Origin: Pedobacter sp.
GTDB taxonomy: Bacteria > Bacteroidota > Bacteroidia > Sphingobacteriales > Sphingobacteriaceae
Direction of reading: 5' to 3'
DNA length: 64,000 nucleotides
Assembly: GCA_008015505.1 (NCBI GenBank)
Contig: SSFR01000001.1
Coordinates: 124,001 to 188,000 of the forward strand
Made by a program: the position numbers and the translations under genes
Part shown: positions 12,067-53,093 of the stretch, piece by piece
Position numbering within the stretch: the stretch's first letter is position 1
Layout of the letters: every line of letters begins with the position of its first letter
Notes under the pieces: generated by a model
What the model was told of the DNA's origin: nothing
What the model saw: only the letters and a program-made list of their open reading frames with translations
Databases searched by the model: none

Positions 12067-14079
12067 TCAATACGACCATAGATCATGTTCGTAATCCATC
12101 AGCTCTTTCTTGATCCGCTCCGATTCATAAAGCCGATCAACGCCTTGCATATAGTCCTTGATACGAATATCTTCCACATTAGACTCTTTTACAATATAGC
12201 TGGAAAAAATTCGCTTCATAAATAAATCATCATAGCTCAAATGACTTGCATCATTTTTACGATTAGCGACTGCTTTAGTTGCTAGGATAGGGCGCGCTTG
12301 GGGGAAGTAGATCCAAAAAGCGGGTTGATCATCTAAAGACTGGCCAGCAGCTTTAATCCGAATCATGGGTGCTATTCCAATAACTCGTGGCTCAAAAACA
12401 GAACGCTGTTTATCGAATATCCAATCTTCTTTAATACGAAACTTGAGCACACTATCAGGATTGAATTCCCCCGGTTTGACATTCGTGCCGATAATGTTTC
12501 CACTTTTATCCAAAATAGGCACCAATACGCTGTCTGCAAGTCTAGTCATCACTTGCTGTGGGCTTAAAATAGCTGAGAATTCATCACCTCCAAGGTCCCC
12601 TTTTCTACTGATTGGGTCGTAAGCTGTTAACTCCCCCGAATTGACTGCATCTAAAAGAATATCTATTAATCTGGCTTGGGGCGCAGCAAACACCTGGTTT
12701 ATTTTTTCTCGGAGATCTATCTCGCGCCAAATACGTTTAGAATACATTACATCAGCTTCTCTCATTACAGCACGAGCTGCTACTTTCGAGCCCTGGACAA
12801 TTTCTTTTTTATAATAACCATCAATAGGCCTTAGTAACTCAGACTTAGGCTTCAACGCAACAGACGTACTAGCAGACACTGCTATCTTTTTAATCGGTCT
12901 AGTTGATGCATTTACATTACTTCCTAAGGTATCTAATACACTTTCACGACGATTTTCGGGATTCGAATTAATCACAATATTGATCGACGATGGGGGAGAC
13001 TCACACCCATTTACTGAAACAATAAGCGTATATATACCACTTAACTTTGAATTTGCATTTGTACTCACTATCGGGCTCAATTGATCGGAACTAAAACCAT
13101 TAGGGCCCGTCCACGTATAAATAGCATTAGGCACCGCAGCAGTGGTTAATTGCAATATCCCACCGACATGGATTGGTGAAGCCAAACTAACAATAGGCTT
13201 TTCTAAACCACCACCACTAACCGTAATTGTTAGTGGGCTTTTACAGTAAGCTGTTTTCCATACATATCGATACACGCCAGAAACTTTAAATCCACTGATG
13301 CTTGTTATATTGTCAGTCCCATTAGAAGCTAAATTAGCCCTCGTCTCTGATGGATTATGAGGATCTTGAAGCCATGTACCAACCCCACCCACTGGAACTT
13401 GAACTTCACTCGACAAACACGGCGCAGCTAATTGATTACTACCTATGATCCCATTATTAGCAGTAATTTCAATATCGTCAAGAAAACTCCCCATAGATTG
13501 ACGCTTGCTGACAGAATCTAGCTTTATCGTATTTAATGCCTGAAAAGTAAACCGAGTAGTTGTTTGTCCAGCCGGAACAATATAGGAGGCGTTGTAAAGC
13601 CCCCATGCCATATTTCCATCAGAGGCTTCTATAATAGTGGTTGTGGCCCCACCGGGCCGGCCGGCATAAACTCGGCAGATATCCGTGCCTAATCTTCCAC
13701 GATGGGCAAAATGGATCGTAAAAATAGTAGGACTTGGTGTACTAAAATCTTGATAAATTTTGGATATGGACATGGCATTTAGCTCAATAAACTGATTGCC
13801 GGCGTAAGCAGGCGTACGTTTATTGGTAAACTTATCAACAGTATTTGACTGCCATATTTGGACACGCGACTGTCCAGTAGCAACATGCCAACCCGGAACC
13901 CTGCTTGTATCTACTAATTCCATCGAACCCCTAATTACAGGCTCCTCAAAATTAGAATTGATAGTTGGAATAATACATCCCTGAGACGATTGCCCCCAAC
14001 AACTGTAAGAATACAAACAAAAGAGCAAGAAAAAATATATTCTCCACACAAGTTTTAAGATGCTATAATCTAAATTCAA
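12067..14079 (-). CDS. secreted fusion: adhesin-like N-terminus plus GldN/PorN domain
   Basis: 670 aa. After the signal peptide (ends CWGQ) residues about 35-205 form a galactose-binding-like/DUF642-like region (SNFEEPVIRG, PGWHVATGQ, GNQFIELNA, SFLDDIEITAN), followed by Ig/PKD-like repeats (GVYRYVWKTAYCKSPL, YTWTGPNGFSS, SGIYTLIVSVNGC). From about residue 405 the sequence is GldN-like: YSKRIWREIDLREKINQVF, LDAVNSGELTAYDP, KEDWIFDKQRSVFEPRVIGI, FWIYFPQARPIL. GldN/PorN is a periplasmic component of the T9SS ring, normally about 300 aa and encoded after gldKLM. Here it stands alone, at twice the length. It could be an accessory GldN paralogue or a T9SS-associated adapter. Confidence 0.8.
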   Translation of the reverse strand: MNLDYSILKLVWRIYFFLLFCLYSYSCWGQSSQGCIIPTINSNFEEPVIRGSMELVDTSRVPGWHVATGQSRVQIWQSNTVDKFTNKRTPAYAGNQFIELNAMSISKIYQDFSTPSPTIFTIHFAHRGRLGTDICRVYAGRPGGATTTIIEASDGNMAWGLYNASYIVPAGQTTTRFTFQALNTIKLDSVSKRQSMGSFLDDIEITANNGIIGSNQLAAPCLSSEVQVPVGGVGTWLQDPHNPSETRANLASNGTDNITSISGFKVSGVYRYVWKTAYCKSPLTITVSGGGLEKPIVSLASPIHVGGILQLTTAAVPNAIYTWTGPNGFSSDQLSPIVSTNANSKLSGIYTLIVSVNGCESPPSSINIVINSNPENRRESVLDTLGSNVNASTRPIKKIAVSASTSVALKPKSELLRPIDGYYKKEIVQGSKVAARAVMREADVMYSKRIWREIDLREKINQVFAAPQARLIDILLDAVNSGELTAYDPISRKGDLGGDEFSAILSPQQVMTRLADSVLVPILDKSGNIIGTNVKPGEFNPDSVLKFRIKEDWIFDKQRSVFEPRVIGIAPMIRIKAAGQSLDDQPAFWIYFPQARPILATKAVANRKNDASHLSYDDLFMKRIFSSYIVKESNVEDIRIKDYMQGVDRLYESERIKKELMDYEHDLWSY

Positions 14080-38510: not shown

Positions 38511-38603
38511 TTTAGATTAGAATTAAGATGTGCTTTATTTTGTCAAAAGTAAAAACTTTAAACAAGCTCTATATACCTTTGGCACTTGACTGTTTTCATC
38601 TTT

Positions 38604-39458
38604 ATGAAAAAATATTTTTCACTTGTACTTTTTGCACATACGCTATTTGCCATGCCTTTTGCCTTTATTGGCTTTTTTTTGGCCGTTACAAGCACACCAC
38701 ACCCATTTAGTTGGTACAAACTGATTTTGATGATTTTATGTATGATTTTTGCACGCAATGCAGCTATGGCGTTCAATCGTTATTTGGATCGGTATATTGA
38801 TGCTAAAAACCCACGAACAGCTAATCGCGATATTCCAACTGGGCGAATCTCCGCTAATGGTGCTTTGTTATTTACACTGGCTAATAGCCTCCTTCTAATC
38901 GGATGCACTGCATTAATTAATCGTTTGTGCTTTTATCTTTCACCCATTGCGCTAATGGTTGTATTGGGCTATAGCTATACTAAACGTTTTACACCATTAT
39001 GCCACCTGATTTTAGGTTTGGGTCTATCTCTTGCCCCAATTGGAGCCTACTTAGTGATTGCCGAACAATTTGCTTTGCCCCCCATCTTTTTTTCATTGAC
39101 CGTTTTATGCTGGGTAAGTGGATTTGATATTATTTATGCTTTACAAGACGAAGAATTTGATAAACAAAATAAACTTCAGTCAATCCCCGCATGGGTGGGT
39201 AAAAAGAAAGCACTACGGATTTCTAGCTTTTTACACGGTCTATCTGCCTTATTTATAATCTTGCCTCTGTTTTTTATCCCTTTGGGGACATTTTATGTTT
39301 GCGGCGTAGTACTTTTCATCATCTTATTGGTTTACCAACACTATTTAGTTGCACCAGACGATTTATCTCGAGTGAATCGTGCTTTTTTCACAACCAATGG
39401 AATCGCATCAGTCATATTTGCTTTGTTCTTTCTTTTGGATAACTATTTGAGATTATAA
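38604..39458 (+). CDS. UbiA-family polyprenyltransferase (MqnP/UbiA-like)
   Basis: 284 aa from the ATG at 38604. Eight to nine membrane helices and the two Asp-rich motifs: NRYLDRYIDAKNPRTANRDI and YALQDEEFDK. NPRTxxRxIPxG is characteristic of the 4-hydroxybenzoate/MqnP branch. As menG is in this window, a role in menaquinone prenylation (possibly the futalosine pathway MqnP) is the most likely one; MenA proper usually has a different first motif. A start 18 bp earlier is less likely because it is a weak TTG. Confidence 0.8.
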   Translation: MKKYFSLVLFAHTLFAMPFAFIGFFLAVTSTPHPFSWYKLILMILCMIFARNAAMAFNRYLDRYIDAKNPRTANRDIPTGRISANGALLFTLANSLLLIGCTALINRLCFYLSPIALMVVLGYSYTKRFTPLCHLILGLGLSLAPIGAYLVIAEQFALPPIFFSLTVLCWVSGFDIIYALQDEEFDKQNKLQSIPAWVGKKKALRISSFLHGLSALFIILPLFFIPLGTFYVCGVVLFIILLVYQHYLVAPDDLSRVNRAFFTTNGIASVIFALFFLLDNYLRL

Positions 39459-39481: not shown

Positions 39482-39943
39482 TTACTCAGAATCCCCCTCA
39501 TGGTGCTTCACAGCATGCATAATATGATCTGGCCATTTTTCTTTTTCCCCATGTGCCAACATTTCAGACTTTGATATTCCCATTTTCAATACTTCATTCT
39601 TGAAGTATCTTCCATTGTCCGTTACAATATTATATGTCTTAGAACCCGCTAACTTTGATTGTTCTAGATAAATCGTATTTCCATCTTTCGAATAAAACTT
39701 TACCCCGTCTACTAAACCATATTTCGTCTCAAACCGGCCCTTATAAAAATGGCCATTCCTCTTTAGTTGATTAGCTGGTGGTTGTTTTTTATCAGCTTGT
39801 TTTTCCCCTTTAAATCCGGCATTCCCAGAAGTAGAAACCATAGGTATCTTCTTCTCTATTGAAGGTTGCGTTACCTCTTTTTTACAAGCAGCCACCATAA
39901 TCAAAGCTGCTCTTAGTACAAATATTAAACTAGTTTTCACCAT
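39482..39943 (-). CDS. small lipoprotein L3 of the giant-protein block
   Basis: 153 aa. Lipobox VAAC (Cys20) followed by KKE. A basic, Gln/Lys-rich linker (GNAGFKGEKQADKKQPPANQ) leads to a compact domain: GVKFYSKDGNTIYLEQSKL, NIVTDNGRYFKNEVLK and KEKWPDHIMHAVKHHE. It is a paralogue of the lipoprotein at 44448: both share C-K-K-[ED], GNAG[FW]K, [IV]YLE and the WPxHI motif near the C-terminus. It lies downstream of the 1434-aa giant gene on the same strand after a 135 bp gap. Function unknown. Confidence 0.75.
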   Translation of the reverse strand: MVKTSLIFVLRAALIMVAACKKEVTQPSIEKKIPMVSTSGNAGFKGEKQADKKQPPANQLKRNGHFYKGRFETKYGLVDGVKFYSKDGNTIYLEQSKLAGSKTYNIVTDNGRYFKNEVLKMGISKSEMLAHGEKEKWPDHIMHAVKHHEGDSE

Positions 39944-40078
39944 TTGATTTATCTATAAAGTAAAAGGCTTGAGACAATATCATTTTAACTAGCCACAATA
40001 GATACAAAAAACAAAACTTCCCATTCGAGTGATTTATTACAATACCGATATTCTAATAGCCATTAAAAACAAAATATC

Positions 40079-43000
40079 TTACTCTTTCTCAAATTTTTGT
40101 TGGATGACATGCCCACTGGGGCATACCATACGCAAAACATAGAAGCCCTTGCTCAGATTTTTATGAATAGTGATCACCTCATTGGTCGAGCTAATTATTC
40201 TTTTTTCCAATAACTCTTGCTTACCAGACAAAAGGTTAACCAAATCAATTTGAGCTTCCCCCAAGGCAGCATTCTTAACGGAAAATATAATCTGGTCTCC
40301 CAAAATAGGAGTAGGGTGAATCAACAAAGTTGGTACAATATAAGTGGTCGGTGTATTATTCAGCTTTTTACTATCAACACCAATAAACCCAGAAAAAGAA
40401 CTTACAGTGGTCTGATTTGATATTGATAAAGCTTTAGGAGCACAGCCTAAAAACTCTTTCTCAAGAAAAGATTTTCCCCATGCTCTTGAATCGGTCGTAC
40501 ATCTTGCAAATACACGAACTATATAAACATCACCCTTGTAAAATGTTTTATCAGCAATAACATATCGTAAAGAAGCCCCAGGCGGCCTAGAAAGCGTAAT
40601 CCTGTAATATAATCCATTATCCCACGATTGGCCTTTTTCTATAATCTTCATCAAATATTGATCATGTAAGAAATCGCTTTCCCATTCAAGGGTTAATTGG
40701 TTCTGATCATTAAAATAAGATTCAATTTGGTCACCATCTTCGTCAATAGGCGGGCATGAGGTCTGAACCTCGCCCATGGTTTTCGACTCGCCAAGACTAC
40801 TAACTGTTCCCGATTCACTAAAGTTAAAAGCCTTAACTGTTTCTATCCCTCTCATACCATTACACTGAGGAGTAACTTTAAATAAAAATGAACCACTTCC
40901 TGAAGTATAAACAAAGCTTGGAATTGGCCTTAACACATCAAATGGGTTAGTTTTCCCAGGGCCAGGAGATAGCCGTTGACGTGCATCAACAAGCCCTTCT
41001 TTCTGATCAGCATACTCCAGATAATAGCCTGAAGTATTATCCCCACCATCCCACGTAATTATATAAGAATTTACAGAATCCTGAACTTTGGTCGCTGTGA
41101 TACTACCAATATCTACCCGGCACTGTCCCCTGGCATAAGTAAATTTTATTGTATCAGAATAAGCTGACCATGCTGAAGTGACACCACATTTCAGTCGAAA
41201 CCGAGCTTTATAGGTACTGGATATCGCATAAGGGGTGCGTGCGTCTTCAAATACCACCTCTGATAGAGGCTGATTATGGCTAGGATTATAAATTCTCGGA
41301 ATGGAATAAAGAAAAGACCTATCTTCCCAATTTTTATCCTCCTTTTGAATTTGAAACTGAAATTCAGTTGCACTCGCCGGCGCGTTCCATGAGAACCTAG
41401 AAGCAACTCTACCAAGATCCGAAGTAATAAATTGATGATGAGGTTTATCATTAATAGGGCTCGCACAGTCTTCAGGATGAGTTTCACAAACAAAAATTTC
41501 ATGGTATGGAACTTCAAAATTTATTGGCACTATTGAAACCTCATCAGCAACTTCAATGCGATTTAACGAGAAGGATTTATGTTGATCTAAATAGTCACTT
41601 ATAGTATTATAAATTTTCGATAGATTGGCTTTTTCAATCTGTTCAAACATATTCACATAACGATTTAATCTTCCTTGACGTTTACTGGTTAAATTTTGAG
41701 GTTTAAATTGATCCGTTTCCATAATCAATTGAATACACTCTTTTATAGTTATAGGTTTCTTTCCTACCAATGAAGTAAAATGGTTATAATCAACATAGTT
41801 TTCTATAAGAGCCATTTGATCACTGTCTAAAGAACAAGCAATGAATGGTTCGATATAAGCATACACTTTTTGGAAATAGGGAACAAGCGCCCCAATTTGT
41901 CTTATATTCTCTTTATGACGGCTCAGTTTATTAAAATTATCTGTTTGTGTAAATGACGATCCTTTCCATGAGTTACTATTCCAACTAACTGAATGATTAT
42001 ACATTTTACTTGTATTAATTATCGAACTAATACTTTGAGAAGCTCTTTGAGCATAACTTGCTGAAGTACTCGCCATCAGCTTTGGAAAATCAAACCTAAC
42101 CTCAACAAACTTATCTTGCCCCTCCGTCCTGCTACGTTCATCAGTGGAAGAAGAGCTATCTTGGTTTTGATCTACATGCCCACTATCCCGACTATTTCCC
42201 CTTGAGTGTTGGTTACTATTAGAGTTACTATTAGACTCTTCTTGCTCGATATCCGTTTGCAATGATTCATTATAACGTAATATCCTGTTTTTTCCCAGTC
42301 TATATTGAGAGATCGTGGTAAGTTTAAAGGGATTATTTTTTTTCAAAGGAATCCAAAAGTATACTGACTCCGCCGAGGACCTGTAATCATCAATCTTATT
42401 TATCGAGATATACTTTGTTATATTTTTCTTTCTTTCAGTACCATTTATAGCCAATTTACACTTGACAAAAAAACCACTTAACGCTTGATCTGATACCGCT
42501 TTTATTCTTTTTATTGAATCGAAATCAACAAAGCCATTCTTAACTACGATTTTAGGCGTTGGAGGAAACTTGAATACGTTATAATTTACTTCCTGGATTT
42601 CATATTTGCCACTTTTGAGGAATATGTCTAGAACTGCTTTACTATCTAAAAATGCAACCCCTATCCTGAATTGCTTGGGCTCCTCAACCTCAAGACTTGT
42701 TCTGGTTTTAATCACAAATGAAACTTCATCTCTAATACCATTAACTACTACTGTAGATGGCCCCGTGATTAACTCAGATCCAGGCCCTGTATAAGAAAGC
42801 TGAAGTATTGTCCTGGTTAATGCTGTTAATTTGGAATACTTAGGGTCAAACTTTAATGTGATTGTTAACGAACCACCTGTCATCATCGACAAACTATCAG
42901 CACTCAATGCTATATTTTCCCCACTTATTAAAGAGCCAGATGAATGCGGAATAAATCTAAGTTCTGAGCTAGACGCTATCCACTCACTATTCGTGCCACA

Positions 43001-44383
43001 CTTATGGGAAATCCTAGCCACATACGCTGACCTTAAATTATAACTGCTCTTGGTATCCTTAACAAACCCGCTGGAATGCCACCGCTCAATAGGTCTAGAA
43101 ATTGTTTGAGAAGTACTACCTATTGAATTCCAAGACTCCCCTTCTTTTTTTATCTCCAATAAAAAATCAGTAGCACTTACTGGAGCATCCCAAGAAAACT
43201 GTGGATAACCATCACTTGAAAAAGTTTGTTCCATTGGTTTTGTAATAACAGAACAATCAACCGGTCGATTAACCCCAGGTACTATAATTGGATTGTTATA
43301 ATTTATTTCACAGTTAAGCAAAGCAAGAGCACATTCATTGATTCGAACATTTCTTACCTGATTACCAAGAAAACCCTTTGTTATACTATCATAGCTCTCT
43401 AAAAGATCTTTATTCACTTTCAATACATCAGGAAATTTTTTTATGTACCAATAAAAGAAGTCTTTATCATATTTTATTTTGTCTACAAAATAACCTTCCT
43501 CATTTTTTACATAAAAAATGTGAGCGATAAAGTGTTCTATACTTGATCTATAGCCATAGCCCTGATTGTATCTGTAACAGAACTCAGGATCATTTTTATG
43601 ATCATAATCAATATACTCTCCAATGTCTATGGGCTGATTTGTACCGGGTAACACACCTAGCGTATAGCTTACCTTCGGACTCACGATCGCATAATCTTTT
43701 ACAAAACCTGGTGTATTGGGGCCTTGTACTATTAAAGAATGCGTAACTACTTCACTTTTTTTAGCAATACCATTGGGTTCTGCCTCCGTAGATTTGAAAC
43801 CGAAGAACTCAGCATTTTTCAGTTTCGAATCTAGTCCGGGGCTACTTGCCGCATAAAGACCCCTGATGTCCAACTGTTGAAGTTTGGCTTTAAGGAGATC
43901 CTCTCCAGCAATACGATATCCACTTTTTTGTTTATTCGCCTCATTCAGCTCCGACAGATTTAAAGTATATCCAGATACCAGTTGAACATTTCTTATTACT
44001 GATTGATTATAACCTACACTTACCTCATCTAGCTTGGTATATGCTGCTGTAGCCGTATAACGTAGTGGATTATCTTTTTTTAATGGGATCCACAAATACA
44101 ACGAATCGGGAACAGTGCACGTAACCCAGTTACCAAAAAAGCCACTATCTATCTCCCTGCTTAATCTGCACAAAATCCAAAACCCTGATACCCTTTCAAC
44201 TGCTTGCGATTTTTTCTTTAAAGCCAAATTTGAATCAAATCCGACGCCTATTTTAGGTAATTCCGGCAAGGCCAAAAAACCATCTGTTAAAATAGATTGT
44301 GCTTGTACATTTATAATGCTTGCACAGAATAATAGACTACATAAAAGGACTAAGAGTAGTCTTTTGGTAAAAGATATTTTCAT
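40079..44383 (-). CDS. giant T9SS-sorted modular surface protein G2 (1434 aa)
   Basis: Signal peptide (ends VQAQ). Two copies of an unnamed module marked by WIPLKK (residues about 98-103 and 676-681): a beta-rich start (LPELPKIGV / FPPTPKIVV), a CKL-type strand, WIPLKK, then a coiled, Ser/Asn/Gln-rich part and a helical QGPNTPGFVKDY / QIGALVPYFQKVY part with YVDYN/IDYDH. Fibronectin III-like modules follow each copy (FSWDAPVSATDF, HKCGTNSEW; FSWNAPASATEF, LKCGVTSAW), with a Calx-beta-like module in between. A C-terminal type A sorting domain (LLIHPTPILGDQ, LSKGFYVLRMVCPSG) implies secretion by T9SS. Function unknown; adhesion is possible. Confidence 0.85.
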   Translation of the reverse strand: MKISFTKRLLLVLLCSLLFCASIINVQAQSILTDGFLALPELPKIGVGFDSNLALKKKSQAVERVSGFWILCRLSREIDSGFFGNWVTCTVPDSLYLWIPLKKDNPLRYTATAAYTKLDEVSVGYNQSVIRNVQLVSGYTLNLSELNEANKQKSGYRIAGEDLLKAKLQQLDIRGLYAASSPGLDSKLKNAEFFGFKSTEAEPNGIAKKSEVVTHSLIVQGPNTPGFVKDYAIVSPKVSYTLGVLPGTNQPIDIGEYIDYDHKNDPEFCYRYNQGYGYRSSIEHFIAHIFYVKNEEGYFVDKIKYDKDFFYWYIKKFPDVLKVNKDLLESYDSITKGFLGNQVRNVRINECALALLNCEINYNNPIIVPGVNRPVDCSVITKPMEQTFSSDGYPQFSWDAPVSATDFLLEIKKEGESWNSIGSTSQTISRPIERWHSSGFVKDTKSSYNLRSAYVARISHKCGTNSEWIASSSELRFIPHSSGSLISGENIALSADSLSMMTGGSLTITLKFDPKYSKLTALTRTILQLSYTGPGSELITGPSTVVVNGIRDEVSFVIKTRTSLEVEEPKQFRIGVAFLDSKAVLDIFLKSGKYEIQEVNYNVFKFPPTPKIVVKNGFVDFDSIKRIKAVSDQALSGFFVKCKLAINGTERKKNITKYISINKIDDYRSSAESVYFWIPLKKNNPFKLTTISQYRLGKNRILRYNESLQTDIEQEESNSNSNSNQHSRGNSRDSGHVDQNQDSSSSTDERSRTEGQDKFVEVRFDFPKLMASTSASYAQRASQSISSIINTSKMYNHSVSWNSNSWKGSSFTQTDNFNKLSRHKENIRQIGALVPYFQKVYAYIEPFIACSLDSDQMALIENYVDYNHFTSLVGKKPITIKECIQLIMETDQFKPQNLTSKRQGRLNRYVNMFEQIEKANLSKIYNTISDYLDQHKSFSLNRIEVADEVSIVPINFEVPYHEIFVCETHPEDCASPINDKPHHQFITSDLGRVASRFSWNAPASATEFQFQIQKEDKNWEDRSFLYSIPRIYNPSHNQPLSEVVFEDARTPYAISSTYKARFRLKCGVTSAWSAYSDTIKFTYARGQCRVDIGSITATKVQDSVNSYIITWDGGDNTSGYYLEYADQKEGLVDARQRLSPGPGKTNPFDVLRPIPSFVYTSGSGSFLFKVTPQCNGMRGIETVKAFNFSESGTVSSLGESKTMGEVQTSCPPIDEDGDQIESYFNDQNQLTLEWESDFLHDQYLMKIIEKGQSWDNGLYYRITLSRPPGASLRYVIADKTFYKGDVYIVRVFARCTTDSRAWGKSFLEKEFLGCAPKALSISNQTTVSSFSGFIGVDSKKLNNTPTTYIVPTLLIHPTPILGDQIIFSVKNAALGEAQIDLVNLLSGKQELLEKRIISSTNEVITIHKNLSKGFYVLRMVCPSGHVIQQKFEKE

Positions 44384-44447
44384 AAATTTTTTCGATTACT
44401 TCACCATCAATAATGAAGCTAAAAATGACCAGTAAAGTCCATTACAA

Positions 44448-44930
44448 CTAGTAATAATCCTCATTGTTAAGATCTCGCTGTATATGAGCAGGCCAATGAT
44501 CGGTTCTTGACTTTTCAACCATTTCTCTTGAGGACCAGCTTTTCATAGTATCTACAAATTGGCCATTCTTATCTAGTATGACCCCGTTATATTTTCCTGA
44601 GTCCAATTTCTCAAGATAAACTCTTTGACCATTTTGTTGTTGAAATACCTTGCCGTCAAGGATACCTCTATTTATCACATCATAGACCTCATCACTGGCT
44701 AACTTGCCTCCTTTAGGACCAGAAGGCTTATTCACATTTTGGTTCCTATTGGTTTTACCTTGCTGGTTGGTTGTTGGTTTCTGGTTCTTCCAGCCCGCAT
44801 TACCGACTAAATACATTGTGGCTGCTGTATTTTGTGTTATAACAGGCTCCACAATAGCGTCTTTTTTACACCCCATATTTACGAGCGTAACAAGTGCCAT
44901 ACCCAATACAAACTTTAAATTGCTTTTCAT
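44448..44930 (-). CDS. small lipoprotein L2 of the giant-protein block
   Basis: 160 aa. Lipobox VNMGC (Cys21) followed by KKD. A linker with Asn/Gln/Lys (NQQGKTNRNQNVNKPSG) and a compact end domain: DGKVFQQQNGQRVYLEKLD, GVILDKNGQFVDTMKSW and DHWPAHIQRDLNN. Paralogue of the lipoprotein at 39482. It lies between the two giant genes, 64 bp before G2 starts and 145 bp after G1 stops, so G1-L2-G2 can form one transcript. Confidence 0.75.
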   Translation of the reverse strand: MKSNLKFVLGMALVTLVNMGCKKDAIVEPVITQNTAATMYLVGNAGWKNQKPTTNQQGKTNRNQNVNKPSGPKGGKLASDEVYDVINRGILDGKVFQQQNGQRVYLEKLDSGKYNGVILDKNGQFVDTMKSWSSREMVEKSRTDHWPAHIQRDLNNEDYY

Positions 44931-45075
44931 CTCTTAATTGGTTTAGTTTTTAGGACATGAACGACAAGTAATCTTTAATTGTATTTATGAAGAGTTAAAT
45001 TTCTACAGCCATTATAAAATTAAAGGGTTTTAGAAGCCGATTACTCCACATCTTTAATCCGCCTTAGTAGATAAG

Positions 45076-48000
45076 TTATTCTTTAATCAGTTGTTTAGTT
45101 AATCGACATTGGTCATCTAATACTACCTCCAATATATATTGCCCCTGTAATAGACTCTCGTTAATAACTACTGATTCTCCTTTTTGAATAATATGAGGCC
45201 ATTTTTTGGAATACACTACCCTTCCTGTATTAACATTATGGACTTGAATAAGTGCTTTTCCTTTCTCTATTGGCTTTTCTATATTCTTAATTGAAAAGCA
45301 GATATAATTACTCACGGGGTTTGGAGCAATAAGTAGCTCCGGTGAAAGTCTAGCACTTTCCGTTTCCGAAGATGCTGAGGCACTGGTCGATAAACTATGA
45401 TCAACCATTGAAAGAGAGGCTTCGATTGGTCGCTCAGGTCCATTATTAGTATTCCTTTGCGGATCGTTTATCGATGTCACACTAAAACTTTCCCATACAG
45501 TAAGTGGACACCAAGTACCTGGATTCTCTCTACATCTAACTAGTACTCGAGCTTCATAAGAACCAACACCATAGGGGATACTATCATTATATATCTGTGT
45601 TAGATCCTCCGGATCGATATTAGACTCAAATTGAATATTGGGATTAGTTCTAAATATTTTTTTTGAGCTTTTTTTTCTAACATCTATTTTATAAAAAATA
45701 GAATTAACCCCCTGTTCCCATTCAAACTCAGCTTTATTTTCATGATCAATATTGATTGTCAGAGAACTGGTAGCCGATGCACATACCCTTCCCCCTACAT
45801 GATCAAATTCAAATGGTACATCTCCAAAGGGGTAGTCTATTCCTCCACTAAAAACGGTGTTTCCTTTACCGAGACTAATACTATTCCCCAGAGAGAAAGG
45901 GAAATTTCCACCACCACCAACTGAGCTATTTCCAACACCACTACTTTTACAATATGTTACTAATCGAAATACATACTTGCTTGCTCTATCGTAATTTGTA
46001 AATACATCCACAACTTCTGATGGAAGAGGAACACCTGGATCTTTAGTCACCGTCACGGCAAGTATTCCCTTTTCACTAGACCAAGACTCCCCTGTTTTTT
46101 TAATTAGGATAACTACTTTCTCAGTTACAGGACTTACTTTCCAAGAAAATACAGGATTCTGATCCTGATTAATACGTACTGTTGGCTTTTCCAAAACAGC
46201 CGGACAAACAGGGAAAGTCCCGCTTTCTGTCATTGGTCCTTTATGGTTATGGCAAACAGCACTAACCCTGATCCGAAAATCCTCACCACTTCGATGAATA
46301 AATGTAGTTCCCTTTGGACCATTATATCTCTTTTCATCAAAAGGGTGCCCTTGTCCAAAAGCATTTATACGCACTCTAGCTTCTTCAAAGGTCTCACTTG
46401 TGGTAGCATATTGGACATTATAGCCCTGGGCACCCGGAACAGGATCCCATGTGATAACATAGCTACCATCTGCTTGCTGCTCTCCCTTAATATTATTTAC
46501 CGAATACGTCGATTTAGGCAATGGGACAAATGTTACTATAGGAGAATACTGTGATAACCATTCACCAGATGCCCCACATTTCACTTGAATACGGGCTTCA
46601 TACACTTCATCAATACCATATGCAGATTTATCATCCTTATAAATCGGTGGGGTTGGCTCATTTTGACTGTTATAGGTTCGCATAATCACTTCATTAAGAA
46701 TCAATGTTGTCCAATCACCCCCTTTCTTCTGAACCTGCAGCTTAAACTCAGTTGCACTTGACGATGCTTCCCATGTAAATGATGGCTCACCACTCCCAAT
46801 ACTAACTGTGGGAGTTATTGCAATTGAAGTACAACTTATAGGATAAGTCTCACAGAGAAATACAGCACCATAAGGAGCTCTAAAATCAGTGATATTAAAA
46901 GAATAGCTATCCACTTCAATACTATTTAACGTATACGCAGTAACAGATTTATTTTTTTTGATATCATCATAAATATTTGAAAGTGATTTATTTACAGTTA
47001 CAACCTGCGGATACTTCACCAAATAATGATTCAACGTTTCATTAATATGATTAGGAGCAGGTGGCCTCATAATTTCCTGAACATATTCTTTTATATTCTT
47101 AGGTCTGACAGATCCTAAAAAATCCATACCATCGTAATCAATATATTTCTCGATACTTTCCAGTTTTAACTCTGAGTCTTCATCACTTGGATCAATCAAT
47201 GCGTACGTGACCGAGGGTTGTACAAAGCCATACACTTTTACAAAATGTGGAACCAACGGACCTATTTTACTGATGTTACTACTATGCTGAACGGCTACAT
47301 CACTGCCCTCACTCTCTGTGAATGTTTGTCCTTGCCTGTTATTAACGCGATATCCAAGTTTACTATCCATCCATGCTCTAGCAATACTGCTATTAAAATG
47401 AGTAATGGATTTAGTTTGATTTCTATGATTATTCCTCGAGGAGTTTGTCCAAAAATCCCCACTAAAAGGGACTCCATAGCCAGGGAAATTAAAATTTATT
47501 GCCGTTCCTGTAACCTGTCCTCCGGATTTCCCCTCATTGATCTCATCCAGCATAGAAATTGAACTAGTTGTCAAGCGCTCACCTCCAGACCCATTTTCTC
47601 TATGGATTTCTTGAAACTGTTCATCAAATCGATTATTGGACGTCTGATAATTTGTTCTAGTGCTGTATGAATTTTGCACATTCAAGCCCTCTTGATATCT
47701 TAAAACATCTGTATTGCCTAGCTTATATTCACACGCTGCACGATACCTAAATGAATTGGTGTTTTTTAGTGGGACCCAGAAATATATTGGTTTGACATCA
47801 ACAGCATAACCATATAGTCCATCAGTGGATAAATACTTGTGCATCGTTTGTCCATCTTTAGTAAACCTGGCTTTCAGCTTACACTCCACAAAAACTCCAT
47901 CCGGTACTTTTTTAGACATGGAAACTATCCTCTCTCTAGAAGTAAGCTCAACCATATTTTTTTCAAAATGTAACTTGGGTAACTCGGGGAAAGCAAGCTC

Positions 48001-50148
48001 ATCGCTAACCATTTCCCGGATGGTATACTGATCACTTTTCAGTGTAAAAACCAATTCTCCCAAACGCTCTACTCGATTATCTTGTCCCAAAGTCTTGGCA
48101 ACGATTTTCACCTTCTTATGATCTGAAAGATTATAGTTGGACTTAACATTAATGGCAAATGGGACTGCTATGCCCCCATCTACTTTATTTCTTGTATCAA
48201 TCTCTACAACTCCGGGACCTTCAACCAGATGAGCCTGAGAGCCTTCGTAGCCTAATCTGATTCTTACTTTACCTACCGCCCTAGAATCAGTCGGGTTATA
48301 TGTTAATGTAACTGTTGTTGAGCTTCCTGCTGTTAGCTCTGTCCGAGTAGCTGTCAGTGACACTGTGGGTTGAGATGTGGGTTTAAGTGCAATAGGTAGA
48401 GTATATAAATTGATAACTGATTGATCCTTCTCTTCAACAAGTGAGAACTCCTTTTCTACATTATATTTATCTAGATCACCATAGTTTACTCTGCAATCAT
48501 ATAGAGCAATAGCATAACTGTGCACAGAAATGCCATGCTTCTCATTCATTACCTCCCAAATATTTCTATTTGTTCCATCATCCCAGACCTTATGCGGAGC
48601 AACTGGAACAGTACATTTTCTATCATTAAAACCATTATTGAGTTCATCTACCAAGGGATATTTTTTCAGGTACTCCATTAAACTAGTGGAACTACTAAGT
48701 ACACTCCGGATATAACTACTAATTTTATCAGCTGATATATATGATTTTATATCTATGTTTTCCAGTTTCCCATTTGCATCTCCCAAATGATAAAAAATTT
48801 GAGGCGAAAAATGAGCTATTGCTTTTCTATAGCCCGCCGTACTTGGCCCTTGTGCAAGTCTTTCCCTATCAATAAACTCGGTGCTACTTGTAATCAAATC
48901 ATTCACCGAAGTAGAAACATTAGTCATATCTACTTGCCTTGCATCACCTAAGCGAAATCCAAAATAATTCGTTATATCAGTTCCCGTTGGACTAAGTCCA
49001 CCAATGGCTGCTAATCCTAGTTTAGCATTATCCAAATGTTCATACAACTCTCTTTCTAAAGTATTAAAATAAATGTTTGGCTTATTCTGGGCTAAATTTG
49101 GCCGCTTTTTTAGCGCATACCCTTTTTTATCACCAAACTTTATATTTTTCTGCTCATTATTTGTTAAAAGGTAACCTCCATAACCATCCATTTTATAGCT
49201 CGCATAAGCATGATACCTAAGGCCACAATTATCTAACGGCACCCAAAAGAAAAATGGCCGGCCATCGAAAATGTATCTATCAACAGCCAACTTGCAGGCT
49301 ATCCACACCCCCTTTAACTCATTAGAAGACCTTGCTTTGGTTGTTTGACTTAAATGAGCAACTACTTTCCCATTTTCAACTTTTATTTGAGGAAGATCTG
49401 GGAAGGATAGTATTCCTGTTGAAGATTTAATTTCTGTCCTTAGTAGTTTAATATCTAACGTATTTGAATACTGGCTATATCCATTAGCCTTAGCTGATAT
49501 TGTCAATTTTTTATCACTCTCTCCCACGATATCATTTATATAAATTTGAAATTCAACTTCATCGCGACCTGGCTGTATCAGTACTGAAGTATGCTTAGGC
49601 CAATACCCAGTATCACGAATAAATGAGGCTCCATCACCACTATAATAAAGCATTACTTGAATGGGATCAAAACCTTGATTAACTTCTGGAATCTTCACCT
49701 TAATGCTAATTTTCTGGTCATCCAGCATCTTGTAACTAGTAGTTGATAGTGTAATGGCCTTCGATGGCTGAATATTCCTCACCAATGTAGCTGATACAGC
49801 ACTTGAGGCTGCGTAATTCACAGCACTCGCCGTTATATTTAAGACTCTATCGCTACTTGGAACATTTATCACATCAATAACAAAATCAACTTTTAGCTCT
49901 CCTGCAGGGATCACTACTTTTATCGGTGGCTTGTTCAATAAAGATGCACCAGTACCACTATAAGAAAGATCTACTGTTACAGATGTGCTGCTCGATGCAG
50001 GGATAGCTACATTCCCAGAGATCCAAGTATCGCCTATTACCTTCGTGGCATTCAGACTTAACTTTAGTTGTGCTTGTGCCTTTAATCCACTGATAAAAAA
50101 TACACTACAAATAAAAAAGAGCACAATGCCCCTGGAAAACATGTTCAT
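45076..50148 (-). CDS. giant T9SS-sorted modular surface protein G1 (1690 aa)
   Basis: Signal peptide (ends LKAQA). Two Calx-beta-like modules (about 25-235) precede two copies of the same WxPL module seen in G2: LPQIKV with FFFWVPLDNCGLRYHAYASY (about residue 299) and LPKLHF with IYFWVPLKNTNSFRYRAACEY shortened here to WVPLKNTN (about 793). A third Calx-beta-like module lies between them; several fibronectin III-like modules follow (FTWEASSSATEF, VKCGASGEW). The end LLIAPNPVSNYICFSIKN with LLQGQYILEVVLDD is a type A T9SS sorting domain. A paralogue of G2 with extra N-terminal and Fn3 modules. Codon/base composition looks no different from neighbours by eye. Confidence 0.85.
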   Translation of the reverse strand: MNMFSRGIVLFFICSVFFISGLKAQAQLKLSLNATKVIGDTWISGNVAIPASSSTSVTVDLSYSGTGASLLNKPPIKVVIPAGELKVDFVIDVINVPSSDRVLNITASAVNYAASSAVSATLVRNIQPSKAITLSTTSYKMLDDQKISIKVKIPEVNQGFDPIQVMLYYSGDGASFIRDTGYWPKHTSVLIQPGRDEVEFQIYINDIVGESDKKLTISAKANGYSQYSNTLDIKLLRTEIKSSTGILSFPDLPQIKVENGKVVAHLSQTTKARSSNELKGVWIACKLAVDRYIFDGRPFFFWVPLDNCGLRYHAYASYKMDGYGGYLLTNNEQKNIKFGDKKGYALKKRPNLAQNKPNIYFNTLERELYEHLDNAKLGLAAIGGLSPTGTDITNYFGFRLGDARQVDMTNVSTSVNDLITSSTEFIDRERLAQGPSTAGYRKAIAHFSPQIFYHLGDANGKLENIDIKSYISADKISSYIRSVLSSSTSLMEYLKKYPLVDELNNGFNDRKCTVPVAPHKVWDDGTNRNIWEVMNEKHGISVHSYAIALYDCRVNYGDLDKYNVEKEFSLVEEKDQSVINLYTLPIALKPTSQPTVSLTATRTELTAGSSTTVTLTYNPTDSRAVGKVRIRLGYEGSQAHLVEGPGVVEIDTRNKVDGGIAVPFAINVKSNYNLSDHKKVKIVAKTLGQDNRVERLGELVFTLKSDQYTIREMVSDELAFPELPKLHFEKNMVELTSRERIVSMSKKVPDGVFVECKLKARFTKDGQTMHKYLSTDGLYGYAVDVKPIYFWVPLKNTNSFRYRAACEYKLGNTDVLRYQEGLNVQNSYSTRTNYQTSNNRFDEQFQEIHRENGSGGERLTTSSISMLDEINEGKSGGQVTGTAINFNFPGYGVPFSGDFWTNSSRNNHRNQTKSITHFNSSIARAWMDSKLGYRVNNRQGQTFTESEGSDVAVQHSSNISKIGPLVPHFVKVYGFVQPSVTYALIDPSDEDSELKLESIEKYIDYDGMDFLGSVRPKNIKEYVQEIMRPPAPNHINETLNHYLVKYPQVVTVNKSLSNIYDDIKKNKSVTAYTLNSIEVDSYSFNITDFRAPYGAVFLCETYPISCTSIAITPTVSIGSGEPSFTWEASSSATEFKLQVQKKGGDWTTLILNEVIMRTYNSQNEPTPPIYKDDKSAYGIDEVYEARIQVKCGASGEWLSQYSPIVTFVPLPKSTYSVNNIKGEQQADGSYVITWDPVPGAQGYNVQYATTSETFEEARVRINAFGQGHPFDEKRYNGPKGTTFIHRSGEDFRIRVSAVCHNHKGPMTESGTFPVCPAVLEKPTVRINQDQNPVFSWKVSPVTEKVVILIKKTGESWSSEKGILAVTVTKDPGVPLPSEVVDVFTNYDRASKYVFRLVTYCKSSGVGNSSVGGGGNFPFSLGNSISLGKGNTVFSGGIDYPFGDVPFEFDHVGGRVCASATSSLTINIDHENKAEFEWEQGVNSIFYKIDVRKKSSKKIFRTNPNIQFESNIDPEDLTQIYNDSIPYGVGSYEARVLVRCRENPGTWCPLTVWESFSVTSINDPQRNTNNGPERPIEASLSMVDHSLSTSASASSETESARLSPELLIAPNPVSNYICFSIKNIEKPIEKGKALIQVHNVNTGRVVYSKKWPHIIQKGESVVINESLLQGQYILEVVLDDQCRLTKQLIKE

Positions 50149-50289
50149 AAATTTGTTTTTGGATTTTTCTGACTAAAACAGTTTGCGGAAAGGGATAGCT
50201 TAATTTTTAGATCCTACGGGAGAAAATTGTTCTGAAAATAGTATCAACACGTTGAGTAGTTCGACCCAAACCGGCCGAATGACGATGAG

Positions 50290-50832
50290 TCAGTTTCGAC
50301 TCTCACCCAAGTATCTATTATATGTAGCCCAATATGATGGGCTTTTTTGATAATCATTAACTCCCCAAACCGTTTTCACATCGAATACTTTTCCTGTTCT
50401 TAGATTTATAAAGTAATGCAGTTCCACTTTCCAACCATTAAGATTAGCGCCTTGATCATACACTTTTCTGAAGTTTATCGCTTCATTCCCAAAATAAGTT
50501 TGTAAATCCCTTTTCAACCCATTATCCTTAATCTGGGCCATTTTTACTGATCCGTGGCTATAAAAATAAACACCATTCGCATACAGCACATGGCCAAGAG
50601 ATGGCTTAAGCAATATGTTCCCACATTTTTTAGCCCCTACTACTTTTGCACAGTCTTTCCAATTGGTTTCACTTGGATTACGTCCTATATATCCCCCAGT
50701 TACAGCGCTAAGCTTCCCAGAATCCACAGGGCTGTTCATTCTAATAGGCACTGCTACTTCCTTTTGACACCCCATCTCTAGCAAAGCAGTTAAACCAATA
50801 CCTAGTAGAACCCTCAAAATATCACTTAGCAT
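50290..50832 (-). CDS. small lipoprotein L1 of the giant-protein block
   Basis: 180 aa. Lipobox LEMGC (Cys22) followed by QKE, parallel to L2 and L3. The body differs: GGYIGRNPSETNWKDC, VVGAKKCGNILLKPSLG, VLYANGVYFYSHGSVK and WKVELHYFINLRTGKVFDVK. The lack of the WPxHI end suggests a distant or independent member. It is the first gene of the minus-strand block (141 bp before G1) and diverges from the leader peptide at 51006. Confidence 0.7.
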   Translation of the reverse strand: MLSDILRVLLGIGLTALLEMGCQKEVAVPIRMNSPVDSGKLSAVTGGYIGRNPSETNWKDCAKVVGAKKCGNILLKPSLGHVLYANGVYFYSHGSVKMAQIKDNGLKRDLQTYFGNEAINFRKVYDQGANLNGWKVELHYFINLRTGKVFDVKTVWGVNDYQKSPSYWATYNRYLGESRN

Positions 50833-50939: not shown

Positions 50940-51005
50940 CGCCTCAAAATTGTCCCAGCACATAATTAATTGGGTCAAAGCACATTAACTAAATTTTTAA
51001 TAACA

Positions 51006-51233
51006 ATGAAATTAACAAATCAACTCGTACAAGAAATGAATCTAATGGAAATGCGTAAAACAATAGGAGGGGGAGCCACGGGAGGCCGTGTCTTTACTGA
51101 AAGAGCTGTTGTGAATGTTGTACGTGCAGTAGATTATACATACAAAGGGTATGAATTTTATCAAAAATATCAAAATCAGGCACACAAACCGAATATGCCG
51201 TACAAACACACTTTTAATGGCCACCCTCATTAA
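51006..51233 (+). CDS. double-glycine leader peptide (natural-product-precursor-like) 5
   Basis: 75 aa. Leader MKLTNQLVQEMNLMEMRKTI then GGGATGG; the core RVFTERAVVNVVRAVDYTY is followed by an aromatic, basic, His/Pro-rich tail (YQKYQNQAHKPNMPYKH). It has its own promoter and a very strong terminator, so it is a single-gene unit. It diverges from the lipoprotein/giant-protein block. No protease, exporter or modification enzyme is adjacent. Confidence 0.7.
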   Translation: MKLTNQLVQEMNLMEMRKTIGGGATGGRVFTERAVVNVVRAVDYTYKGYEFYQKYQNQAHKPNMPYKHTFNGHPH

Positions 51234-51260
51234 TTTTTCCTAACTAAGTGGAATGTAAAT

Positions 51261-51301
51261 AAACAAAAGAAGCTGCCCTAAAAGGGCAGCTTCTTTTGTT
51301 T
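51261..51301 (+). terminator. very strong terminator after peptide 5
   Basis: AAACAAAAGAAGCTGCCC and GGGCAGCTTCTTTTGTTT form a perfect 18-bp stem around TAAAA, with the T-rich arm last on the plus strand. Confidence 0.93.
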
Positions 51302-51377
51302 ATTATGCCCTGGCATATTATAACATCAAAAAGTACTCAAAAGCCTAACTTTGAGCGCAACAATTGAATACTTACAC

Positions 51378-53093
51378 ATGGAAAATCTAAAAACTCGAAC
51401 AAAACAACGCAACTATCTCCCTGAATATCTAGAAATCAAATGGGAAACTATCGAACCCTTATTTAATGAACTAAAAAGCCGAAATATCCAGTCTGTAAAT
51501 GAACTTGAAAAATGGCTAAGTGATATTAGCGAGCTAGATGCTGCTTTGGAGGAGGACTTCGCATGGCGTTACATCCACATGACGTGCGATACCACTGACC
51601 CCAAGCGCCTAGAAGACTTTCAGTATTTCGCCACTGAAATAGAACCTAAAGTAGCGCCTATCCACAATGAACTAAATAAAAAATTTATCAATAGCCCCTA
51701 CGCTGAAGAATTAGACTCAAGCAAATATTTCGTTTTCAGACGAAGCATCCAAAAAGCATTAGAGCTCTTTAGAGAAGAAAATGTTCCAATACAAACTCAA
51801 ATTCAAGTAGAACAACAGCAATACCAATCCATCACAGGATCTATGTCGGTCGTTATCAATGAAAAAGAATATACACTAGAACAGGCTTCAGTATTCCTAA
51901 AAGACACCAAAAGAACTATCAGAGAGCAAACATGGAAAGCAATAACCACACGTCGTTTACAAGACAAAGAAAAATTAAATACACTCTTTAATAGCTTATT
52001 GAAACTACGCCACCAAATAGCACTAAATGCAGGATTTGATAATTTCAGGGATTATGCATTCCAAGCACTGGGGCGCTTCGATTATACACCTCAAGACTGT
52101 TTTAACTTCCATGAGGCAATCCGCACAGAAATTGTACCCATCCTTGCTGAACAAGCCCAACAACGTAAGCAGGCTCTACATCTAGATCATTTAAATCCCT
52201 GGGATATGGATGTCGATATTTCTGGAAAACCTGCACTAAAACCATTCCAAAATGGGCAAGACCTGATCGACAAAACCATCGCTTGCTTTCAAAAAATAGA
52301 CCCTTCTTTAGGAGAAAAGCTAAAATTTATGAAAATTGAAGGGCTCTTCGATGTAGATAGCAGAAAAGGCAAAGCACCCGGTGGATACAACTATCCGCTT
52401 GCCGAAATGGGAGCTCCTTTCATCTTCATGAACTCGGCTAATACGTTTCGTGATCTAACCACGATCGTTCATGAAGGGGGACACGCCATCCATACTTTTG
52501 TTTCCGCTACGCTAGCATTGAATGCATTTAAGCACGTACCCTCCGAGGTAGCTGAACTAGCTTCGATGAGTATGGAATTAATATCAATGGATCAATGGGA
52601 TGTATTCTTCAATCATTCTGAAGATTTGAAACGTGCCAAACGCGAACAGCTTAAAGATGTTTTAAAAACTCTGCCCTGGGTTGCAGTAGTAGACCAATTC
52701 CAACACTGGATTTACACGCATCCTAATCATACTATTGAAGAACGAAACGAAACCTGGGAAAAGATATTTACCCAATTTGGAAGCAATTTCGCCGATTGGA
52801 CTGATCATCAGGAAGCACTCCAAAACTTATGGCAAAAACAGCTACACATTTTTGAGATCCCCTTCTACTACATCGAATACGCTATGGCTCAATTAGGCGC
52901 TATCGCTGTTTGGAAACACTACAAAGAAAATCCACAAAAAGGACTTCAAGACTATTTAGAAGCACTGAAACTAGGTTATACTAAAACCATACCTGAAATC
53001 TACCAAACAGCAGGAATAGCATTTGACTTCAGTCCTGAATACATTCGTAGTCTGGCAACATTTGTAAAAGAAGAACTCAATAAATTGGATTAA
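51378..53093 (+). CDS. pepF: M3 family oligoendopeptidase
   Basis: 571 aa from the ATG at 51378 (MENLKTRTKQRNYLPEYLE). Zinc motif HEGGH (about residues 365-369) in TTIVHEGGHAIHTFVS, with a third-ligand Glu in ASMSMELISMD, characteristic of M3 (PepF) enzymes that degrade peptides of about 7-20 residues in the cytoplasm. No signal peptide. An in-frame TTG at 51351 is less likely as start. A TAACTTTG box lies about 35 nt upstream. Confidence 0.93.
   Translation: MENLKTRTKQRNYLPEYLEIKWETIEPLFNELKSRNIQSVNELEKWLSDISELDAALEEDFAWRYIHMTCDTTDPKRLEDFQYFATEIEPKVAPIHNELNKKFINSPYAEELDSSKYFVFRRSIQKALELFREENVPIQTQIQVEQQQYQSITGSMSVVINEKEYTLEQASVFLKDTKRTIREQTWKAITTRRLQDKEKLNTLFNSLLKLRHQIALNAGFDNFRDYAFQALGRFDYTPQDCFNFHEAIRTEIVPILAEQAQQRKQALHLDHLNPWDMDVDISGKPALKPFQNGQDLIDKTIACFQKIDPSLGEKLKFMKIEGLFDVDSRKGKAPGGYNYPLAEMGAPFIFMNSANTFRDLTTIVHEGGHAIHTFVSATLALNAFKHVPSEVAELASMSMELISMDQWDVFFNHSEDLKRAKREQLKDVLKTLPWVAVVDQFQHWIYTHPNHTIEERNETWEKIFTQFGSNFADWTDHQEALQNLWQKQLHIFEIPFYYIEYAMAQLGAIAVWKHYKENPQKGLQDYLEALKLGYTKTIPEIYQTAGIAFDFSPEYIRSLATFVKEELNKLD

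What the first reader, a model, noticed from the sequence alone, without database searches (positions are those of the whole stretch)
39482..50832. Alternating block of two giant T9SS-sorted paralogues and three small lipoproteins
Five same-strand genes in the order L1-G1-L2-G2-L3. G1 (1690 aa) and G2 (1434 aa) share a duplicated module, marked by W[IV]PL[KD], that I cannot assign to a known family, plus Calx-beta-like and Fn3-like modules and a type A T9SS sorting domain. L2 and L3 are clear paralogues (CKK[ED], GNAG[FW]K, YLE, WPxHI); L1 shares only the Cys-x-K-E start. The one-to-one alternation suggests each lipoprotein serves a giant protein, for example as surface anchor, chaperone or partner. 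This is the best candidate in the window for an undescribed system.
Basis: partly seen in the sequence, partly recalled or inferred. Interest (0 to 1): 0.75.

Follow-up and report, generated by a model that had tools for sequence, protein, structure and literature searches.

The report
Private giant surface proteins with lipoprotein neighbours
One Sphingobacteriaceae species carries four giant proteins, very probably exported to its surface, built around a module that matches no known protein family and was not found in any relative searched; small lipoproteins often sit beside their genes but are not fixed one-to-one partners.

Summary
The five genes are real, at the stated coordinates. G1 and G2 are paralogues (28% identity over 861 columns). 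Each carries two copies of a roughly 350-aa WxPL module with no match at or above cut-off in Pfam, NCBIfam or PHROGs, and none among solved structures. Both end in diverged type A T9SS sorting domains, and the window encodes GldN. Elsewhere in the genome are two more paralogues: G3 (one module, no lipoprotein neighbour) and G4 (one module, two lipoproteins downstream, a terminator-like hairpin between them). The module was not found in overlapping samples of 400 same-family, 395 same-class and 395 same-phylum genomes.

L2 and L3 are paralogues; L1 belongs to another class. All share only a lipoprotein leader that also occurs on unrelated lipoproteins. Of eight L-type genes, five lie in G clusters and three are solitary. 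The clustering is real; one-to-one partnership is not supported.

Congeners show the empty sites: ubiA and pepF adjoin in 12 of 14, thrA and rsgA in 9 of 12. Best reading: a lineage-private, dispersed family of T9SS-exported surface proteins, probably adhesin-like, with loosely associated lipoproteins. Toxin readings are weakly hinted, not excluded and not shown.

The parts
50290..50832 (-). L1, small lipoprotein, class B (mature part matches solitary L6 on contig C11)
   Evidence: ORF; leader ending in CQKE; mature part vs L6 E 4e-5
45076..50148 (-). G1, 1690-aa secreted multidomain protein
   Evidence: paralogue of G2
49435..50070 (-).
   Evidence: repeat alignment; no significant family or PDB match
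48379..49431 (-). G1 WxPL module 1 (residues 240-590)
   Evidence: alignment A2
48025..48375 (-). G1 Ig-like repeat between the two WxPL modules
46579..47991 (-). G1 WxPL module 2 and start of the first Fn3-like module (residues 720-1190)
   Evidence: 508 bits
45391..46593 (-). G1 Fn3-like modules
   Evidence: profile A7, best PDB matches are Fn3 domains
45076..45390 (-). G1 type A T9SS C-terminal sorting domain
   Evidence: TIGR04183 23.4 bits (cut-off 23)
44448..44930 (-). L2, small lipoprotein, class A; its nearest relative is the solitary L5 on C16 (46%)
40079..44383 (-). G2, 1434-aa secreted multidomain protein
43199..44287 (-). G2 WxPL module 1 (residues 33-395)
   Evidence: AF2 model of residues 33-389, mean pLDDT 52
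42614..42931 (-). G2 Ig-like repeat
41339..42562 (-). G2 WxPL module 2 and start of an Fn3-like module (residues 608-1015)
40079..40414 (-). G2 type A T9SS C-terminal sorting domain (diverged)
   Evidence: TIGR04183 21.3 bits, E 2e-4, just below cut-off
39482..39943 (-). L3, small lipoprotein, class A
38586..39458 (+). ubiA-type prenyltransferase, left edge of the insertion site
   Evidence: adjacent to pepF in 12 of 14 congeners
51351..53093 (+). M3-family peptidase (pepF), right edge of the insertion site

Best explanation
A species-private, duplicated and dispersed family of giant multidomain proteins (G1-G4). They cross the inner membrane by the Sec pathway and are exported by the type IX secretion system through a diverged type A sorting domain, to be displayed on or shed from the outer surface. 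Fn3-like and Ig-like repeats form the stalk. The WxPL module (predicted antiparallel sheet plus a hypervariable polar insert of 90-140 aa) is the functional head, most likely a ligand-binding or adhesion domain. The small L lipoproteins carry a leader resembling the Bacteroidota surface-export signal and probably sit on the same outer surface. They are co-located with G genes and may be co-transcribed with them in the window, but they are not obligate one-to-one partners. Shown: gene anatomy, paralogy, sorting-domain and Fn3 similarity, the presence of a T9SS ring subunit, absence from the relatives sampled, empty sites in congeners. Inferred: display on the surface, adhesion, the role of the insert, any contact between L and G.
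For: Paralogues G1-G4 in one genome. Sorting domain TIGR04183 in G1-G3; GldN encoded in the window at 12067-14079 (E 1e-57). Fn3 support. The profile of six modules hits only this genome in overlapping samples of 400 same-family, 395 same-class and 395 same-phylum genomes. The block lies between ubiA and pepF, which adjoin in 12 of 14 congeners; G3 lies between thrA and rsgA, which adjoin in 9 of 12. The L leader C-[KQ]-K-[DE] partly fits the published surface lipoprotein signal C-X-K-(D/E)2-X (PMC5080379). L genes lie in two separate G clusters but also alone.
Against: No direct evidence of adhesion. The sorting domains score near or below the curated cut-off and G4's is not detected. The L leader has one acidic residue where the published minimal signal has two. 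The AF2 model of the module is low-confidence (mean pLDDT 52). Composition gives no sign of recent transfer, so how the genes came to these sites is unexplained.
Confidence: 0.5

Rival explanations
1. Each L lipoprotein is a dedicated partner (anchor, chaperone or assembly factor) of the neighbouring G protein.
For: Alternating order in the window; L genes beside G genes at two separate loci; no terminator-like site on the minus strand in the intergenic gaps of the window block.
Against: G3 has no L neighbour. Solitary L5, L6 and L8. L1 and L2/L3 belong to different classes and the class C mature parts are unrelated or low-complexity. Terminator-like hairpin between L7a and L7b.
Confidence: 0.15
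2. The WxPL module is a beta pore-forming domain: a sheet with a polar insert that would form a membrane hairpin. G proteins are secreted antagonists and the L lipoproteins confer self-immunity.
For: Predicted core of long antiparallel strands interrupted by a 90-140-aa polar insert. The best VIA rows are aerolysin-like proteins but at Z 2.4. The G3 insert is more beta-amphipathic than its shuffles (p 0.01). Solitary L genes would resemble orphan immunity genes.
Against: Z 2.4 is noise; no Foldseek match with E below 1. The other five inserts do not pass the amphipathicity test. No aerolysin, ETX/MTX2 or MACPF profile hit. AF2 also places helices in the insert.
Confidence: 0.1
3. The L proteins carry the active part: small toxin-like domains behind a shared leader, working with G as carrier, in the manner of TANFOR-type polymorphic toxins that lie near T9SS substrates.
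For: Shared leader with divergent mature parts in three classes. The model of the L2 C-terminal domain (core pLDDT about 81) lists colicin D tRNase entries and a CDI toxin among its tied best rows (Z 3.8-4.6). A TANFOR-like N-terminus lies at the edge of contig C24. T9SS-substrate and Fn3 domains are enriched near TANFOR genes (PMC7073777).
Against: Those Z values are within noise and tied with unrelated folds such as Pur-alpha. G proteins show no TANFOR domain. No separate immunity gene is seen. The mature parts of L7a, L7b and L8 are low-complexity.
Confidence: 0.1

Closest known systems
Type A T9SS cargo with Fn3/Ig-like stalks (large adhesin-like surface proteins of Bacteroidota)
   Same: Signal peptide, repeat stalk, type A C-terminal sorting domain, large size, T9SS ring subunit in the genome
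   Different: The head module (WxPL) matches no family and was not found in other genomes; sorting domains are diverged
TANFOR polymorphic toxins and their T9SS neighbours (PMC7073777)
   Same: Large secreted proteins of Bacteroidota linked to Fn3 and T9SS sorting domains, sometimes with small adjacent genes
   Different: G proteins have no TANFOR domain and end in a sorting domain rather than a toxin domain
Aerolysin-like and MACPF/CDC-like pore-forming proteins
   Same: Only a general resemblance: long antiparallel strands with a polar insert
   Different: No significant sequence or fold match; the helical segment after the insert is not typical of aerolysins (own knowledge)
Surface-exposed lipoproteins with an export signal (PMC5080379)
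   Same: Lys at +3 and acidic residue at +4 after the lipid-bearing cysteine
   Different: A single acidic residue instead of two; mature domains unassigned

Membership tests
T9SS type A cargo | C-terminal sorting domain (TIGR04183) at or above cut-off | tested here: inconclusive
   G1 23.4 and G3 24.4 bits (cut-off 23); G2 21.3, below; G4 not detected
T9SS type A cargo | T9SS present in the genome | tested here: met
   GldN in the window, E 1e-57; other proteins with TIGR04183 above cut-off
T9SS type A cargo | Export and cleavage dependent on T9SS | not testable with these tools
   needs experiment
Fibronectin type III domain | Profile match | tested here: inconclusive
   best PDB matches of the profile are Fn3 domains, E 0.03; one module matches Pfam fn3 at 0.008
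Calx-beta domain | Profile match to Calx-beta | tested here: not met
   no Calx-beta match by Pfam or PDB profile
TANFOR polymorphic toxin | N-terminal TANFOR domain (TIGR02542) | tested here: not met
   no match in G1/G2; the only weak match in the genome is on contig C24
TANFOR polymorphic toxin | C-terminal toxin domain in the large protein | tested here: not met
   G1-G3 end in a sorting domain; no toxin family hit or 5
Aerolysin-like beta pore-forming proteins | Fold match over the pore-forming domain | tested here: inconclusive
   low-confidence model (pLDDT 52); best Z 2.4 to 6lhz
Aerolysin-like beta pore-forming proteins | Sequence profile match | tested here: not met
   no such hit for any module at E up to 10, within HMMER's speed filters
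BECR-type RNase toxins (colicin D-like) | Fold match of the L2 C-terminal domain | tested here: inconclusive
   Z 3.8-4.3 to colicin D and 4.6 to a CDI toxin, tied with unrelated folds
Surface lipoprotein export signal | C-X-K-(D/E)2-X after the lipid cysteine | tested here: not met
   L1 CQKEV, L2 CKKDA, L3 CKKEV: one acidic residue only (sequence; PMC5080379)

The most novel reading that the evidence does not exclude
The WxPL module is a new beta pore-forming (or otherwise membrane-active) domain delivered by T9SS, with surface lipoproteins acting as cognate immunity or toxin-like partners: a T9SS-based antagonism system of a kind not yet described.
Probability: 0.08. Interest if true: 0.75.

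Novelty: new variant of a known kind. Interest (0 to 1): 0.38.

Why it matters
It is a clear case of a large, multi-copy, T9SS-linked protein family that appears private to one species, with empty insertion sites in its congeners. It bears on how Bacteroidota acquire or invent giant surface proteins. If the module proved membrane-active, it would bear on the open question, raised in PMC7073777, of whether T9SS takes part in competition between bacteria.

Tried and rejected
Pfam, NCBIfam, PHROGs, PADLOC and PDB sequence searches with the G and L proteins: nothing significant. tblastn of G3 in the plasmid and phage collections: no match. Scan of the GTDB genome collection with G2: none. Weak profile hits in two relatives (E 0.002-0.003) fall in unrelated genes that read as ScpB and an NAD-dependent epimerase: chance. 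One hit (E 0.008) was not followed. Foldseek of the G2 module model: nothing with E below 1; VIA best Z 2.4. Foldseek of the L2 domain in PDB and viral libraries: no E at or below 0.001. Shared terminal repeats at the two insertion sites: none. Base composition as a sign of transfer: none. Overlap between the ends of contigs C24 and C25, as a link between the TANFOR fragment and G4: no overlap found. Tandem repeats at the block and tRNAs in the window: none.

Full report
What is there. The five genes stand at the stated coordinates on the minus strand. G1 and G2 align over 861 columns at 28% identity, and each holds two WxPL modules. Their residue layouts are: G1, signal peptide, two Ig-like repeats, module (240-590), Ig-like repeat, module (720 to about 1185), Fn3-like modules, sorting domain; G2, signal peptide, module (33-395), Fn3-like, Ig-like, module (608-1015), Fn3-like modules, sorting domain. 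The sorting domain matches TIGR04183 at 23.4 bits in G1 and 21.3 in G2 against a cut-off of 23. A T9SS ring subunit, GldN, is encoded in the same window (12067-14079), and seven loci besides G1 match the sorting-domain model at E up to 0.01 in a whole-genome search. The Fn3-like label is supported by profile; Calx-beta is not.

Paralogues. The 2.34-Mb genome has two more G genes. G3 on contig C16 (767 aa) is the minimal form: one module, two Fn3-like modules, sorting domain. G4 on C25 is cut at its 5' end by the contig edge (at least 1465 aa) and has several Ig-like repeats before one module. No other genome in overlapping samples of 400 (family), 395 (class) and 395 (phylum) genomes has the module, and 19 congeners have no G2 relative. 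The family is therefore private to this species as far as sampled.

Insertion sites. In 12 of 14 congeners ubiA and pepF adjoin; in one a 1.8-kb stretch with an OmpA-like gene and in another 9.5 kb of other genes lie between them. In this genome the L/G block fills that gap. In 9 of 12 congeners thrA and rsgA adjoin; here G3 lies between them. The flanks share no repeats and the composition is ordinary, so the route by which the genes arrived is open.

The lipoproteins. Ten lipoproteins compared here share, more or less closely, a leader of the form MKxxLKxxL...C[KQ]K[DE], including two PEBP-like proteins that are otherwise unrelated. The leader is therefore not evidence of a common function. 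By their mature parts the L genes form class A (L2, L3, solitary L5; L2/L5 46%), class B (L1, solitary L6; E 4e-5) and class C (L7a and L7b behind G4, solitary L8), the last sharing only about 40 N-terminal residues. Five of eight lie in G clusters. A rough estimate of my own (about 2000 genes, two independent clusters) puts such co-location at about 5e-4 by chance, so the association is real, but local duplication explains part of it. G3 has no L neighbour, and a terminator-like hairpin lies between L7a and L7b. In the window, gaps of 64-145 bases without minus-strand terminators allow a single transcript. Class A was not found in 331 genomes of the family; the two weak hits there cover chiefly the leader end of the profile.

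How it most likely works. By established knowledge of Sec and T9SS, the signal peptide and the sorting domain route G proteins across both membranes; the repeats then present the WxPL head. The head model has a core of long antiparallel strands with block pLDDT up to 84, an uncertain polar insert, and a helical segment. The insert varies from 90 to 139 residues and in composition between paralogues, as expected of a fast-evolving contact surface. Adhesion or ligand binding is the least demanding reading; it is an inference. The L leaders partly fit the published surface-export signal, which would put them on the same face of the membrane.

Toxin readings. The pore-forming idea came from the strand and insert pattern. 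It has one weak positive (the G3 insert, p 0.01) and otherwise noise-level fold matches. The RNase-like idea for the L2 domain has colicin D and CDI toxin rows at Z 3.8-4.6, tied with unrelated folds. Both remain open.

Verdict. The solid novelty is a species-private module family on T9SS-linked giant proteins.

Noticed in passing
window 50970-51233 (+), likely start 51007: Small peptide with a double-glycine-type leader (LTNQLVQEMNLMEMRKTIGGG), divergent from L1 and followed by a strong bidirectional terminator-like hairpin at 51260-51302.
   Followed up: partly
window 12067-14079 (-): GldN with an unusual N-terminal extension of about 420 residues that weakly matches a choice-of-anchor C domain. 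Not compared with congeners.
   Followed up: no
L162 1-438 (-), contig C24 edge: N-terminus of a TANFOR-like protein (146 aa, running off the contig), weak TIGR02542 match E 0.002; no sequence overlap with the truncated start of G4 on C25.
   Followed up: partly
L036 83-1872 and 2157-2549: Solitary L8 lies near a DNA adenine methylase-like gene and a gene that reads like a phage tail-fibre protein.
   Followed up: no
L138 4830-14362, L134, L040: The ubiA-pepF junction holds different inserted genes in different relatives (TonB receptor and PepSY genes, OmpA-like gene, others), so it is a variable site.
   Followed up: partly
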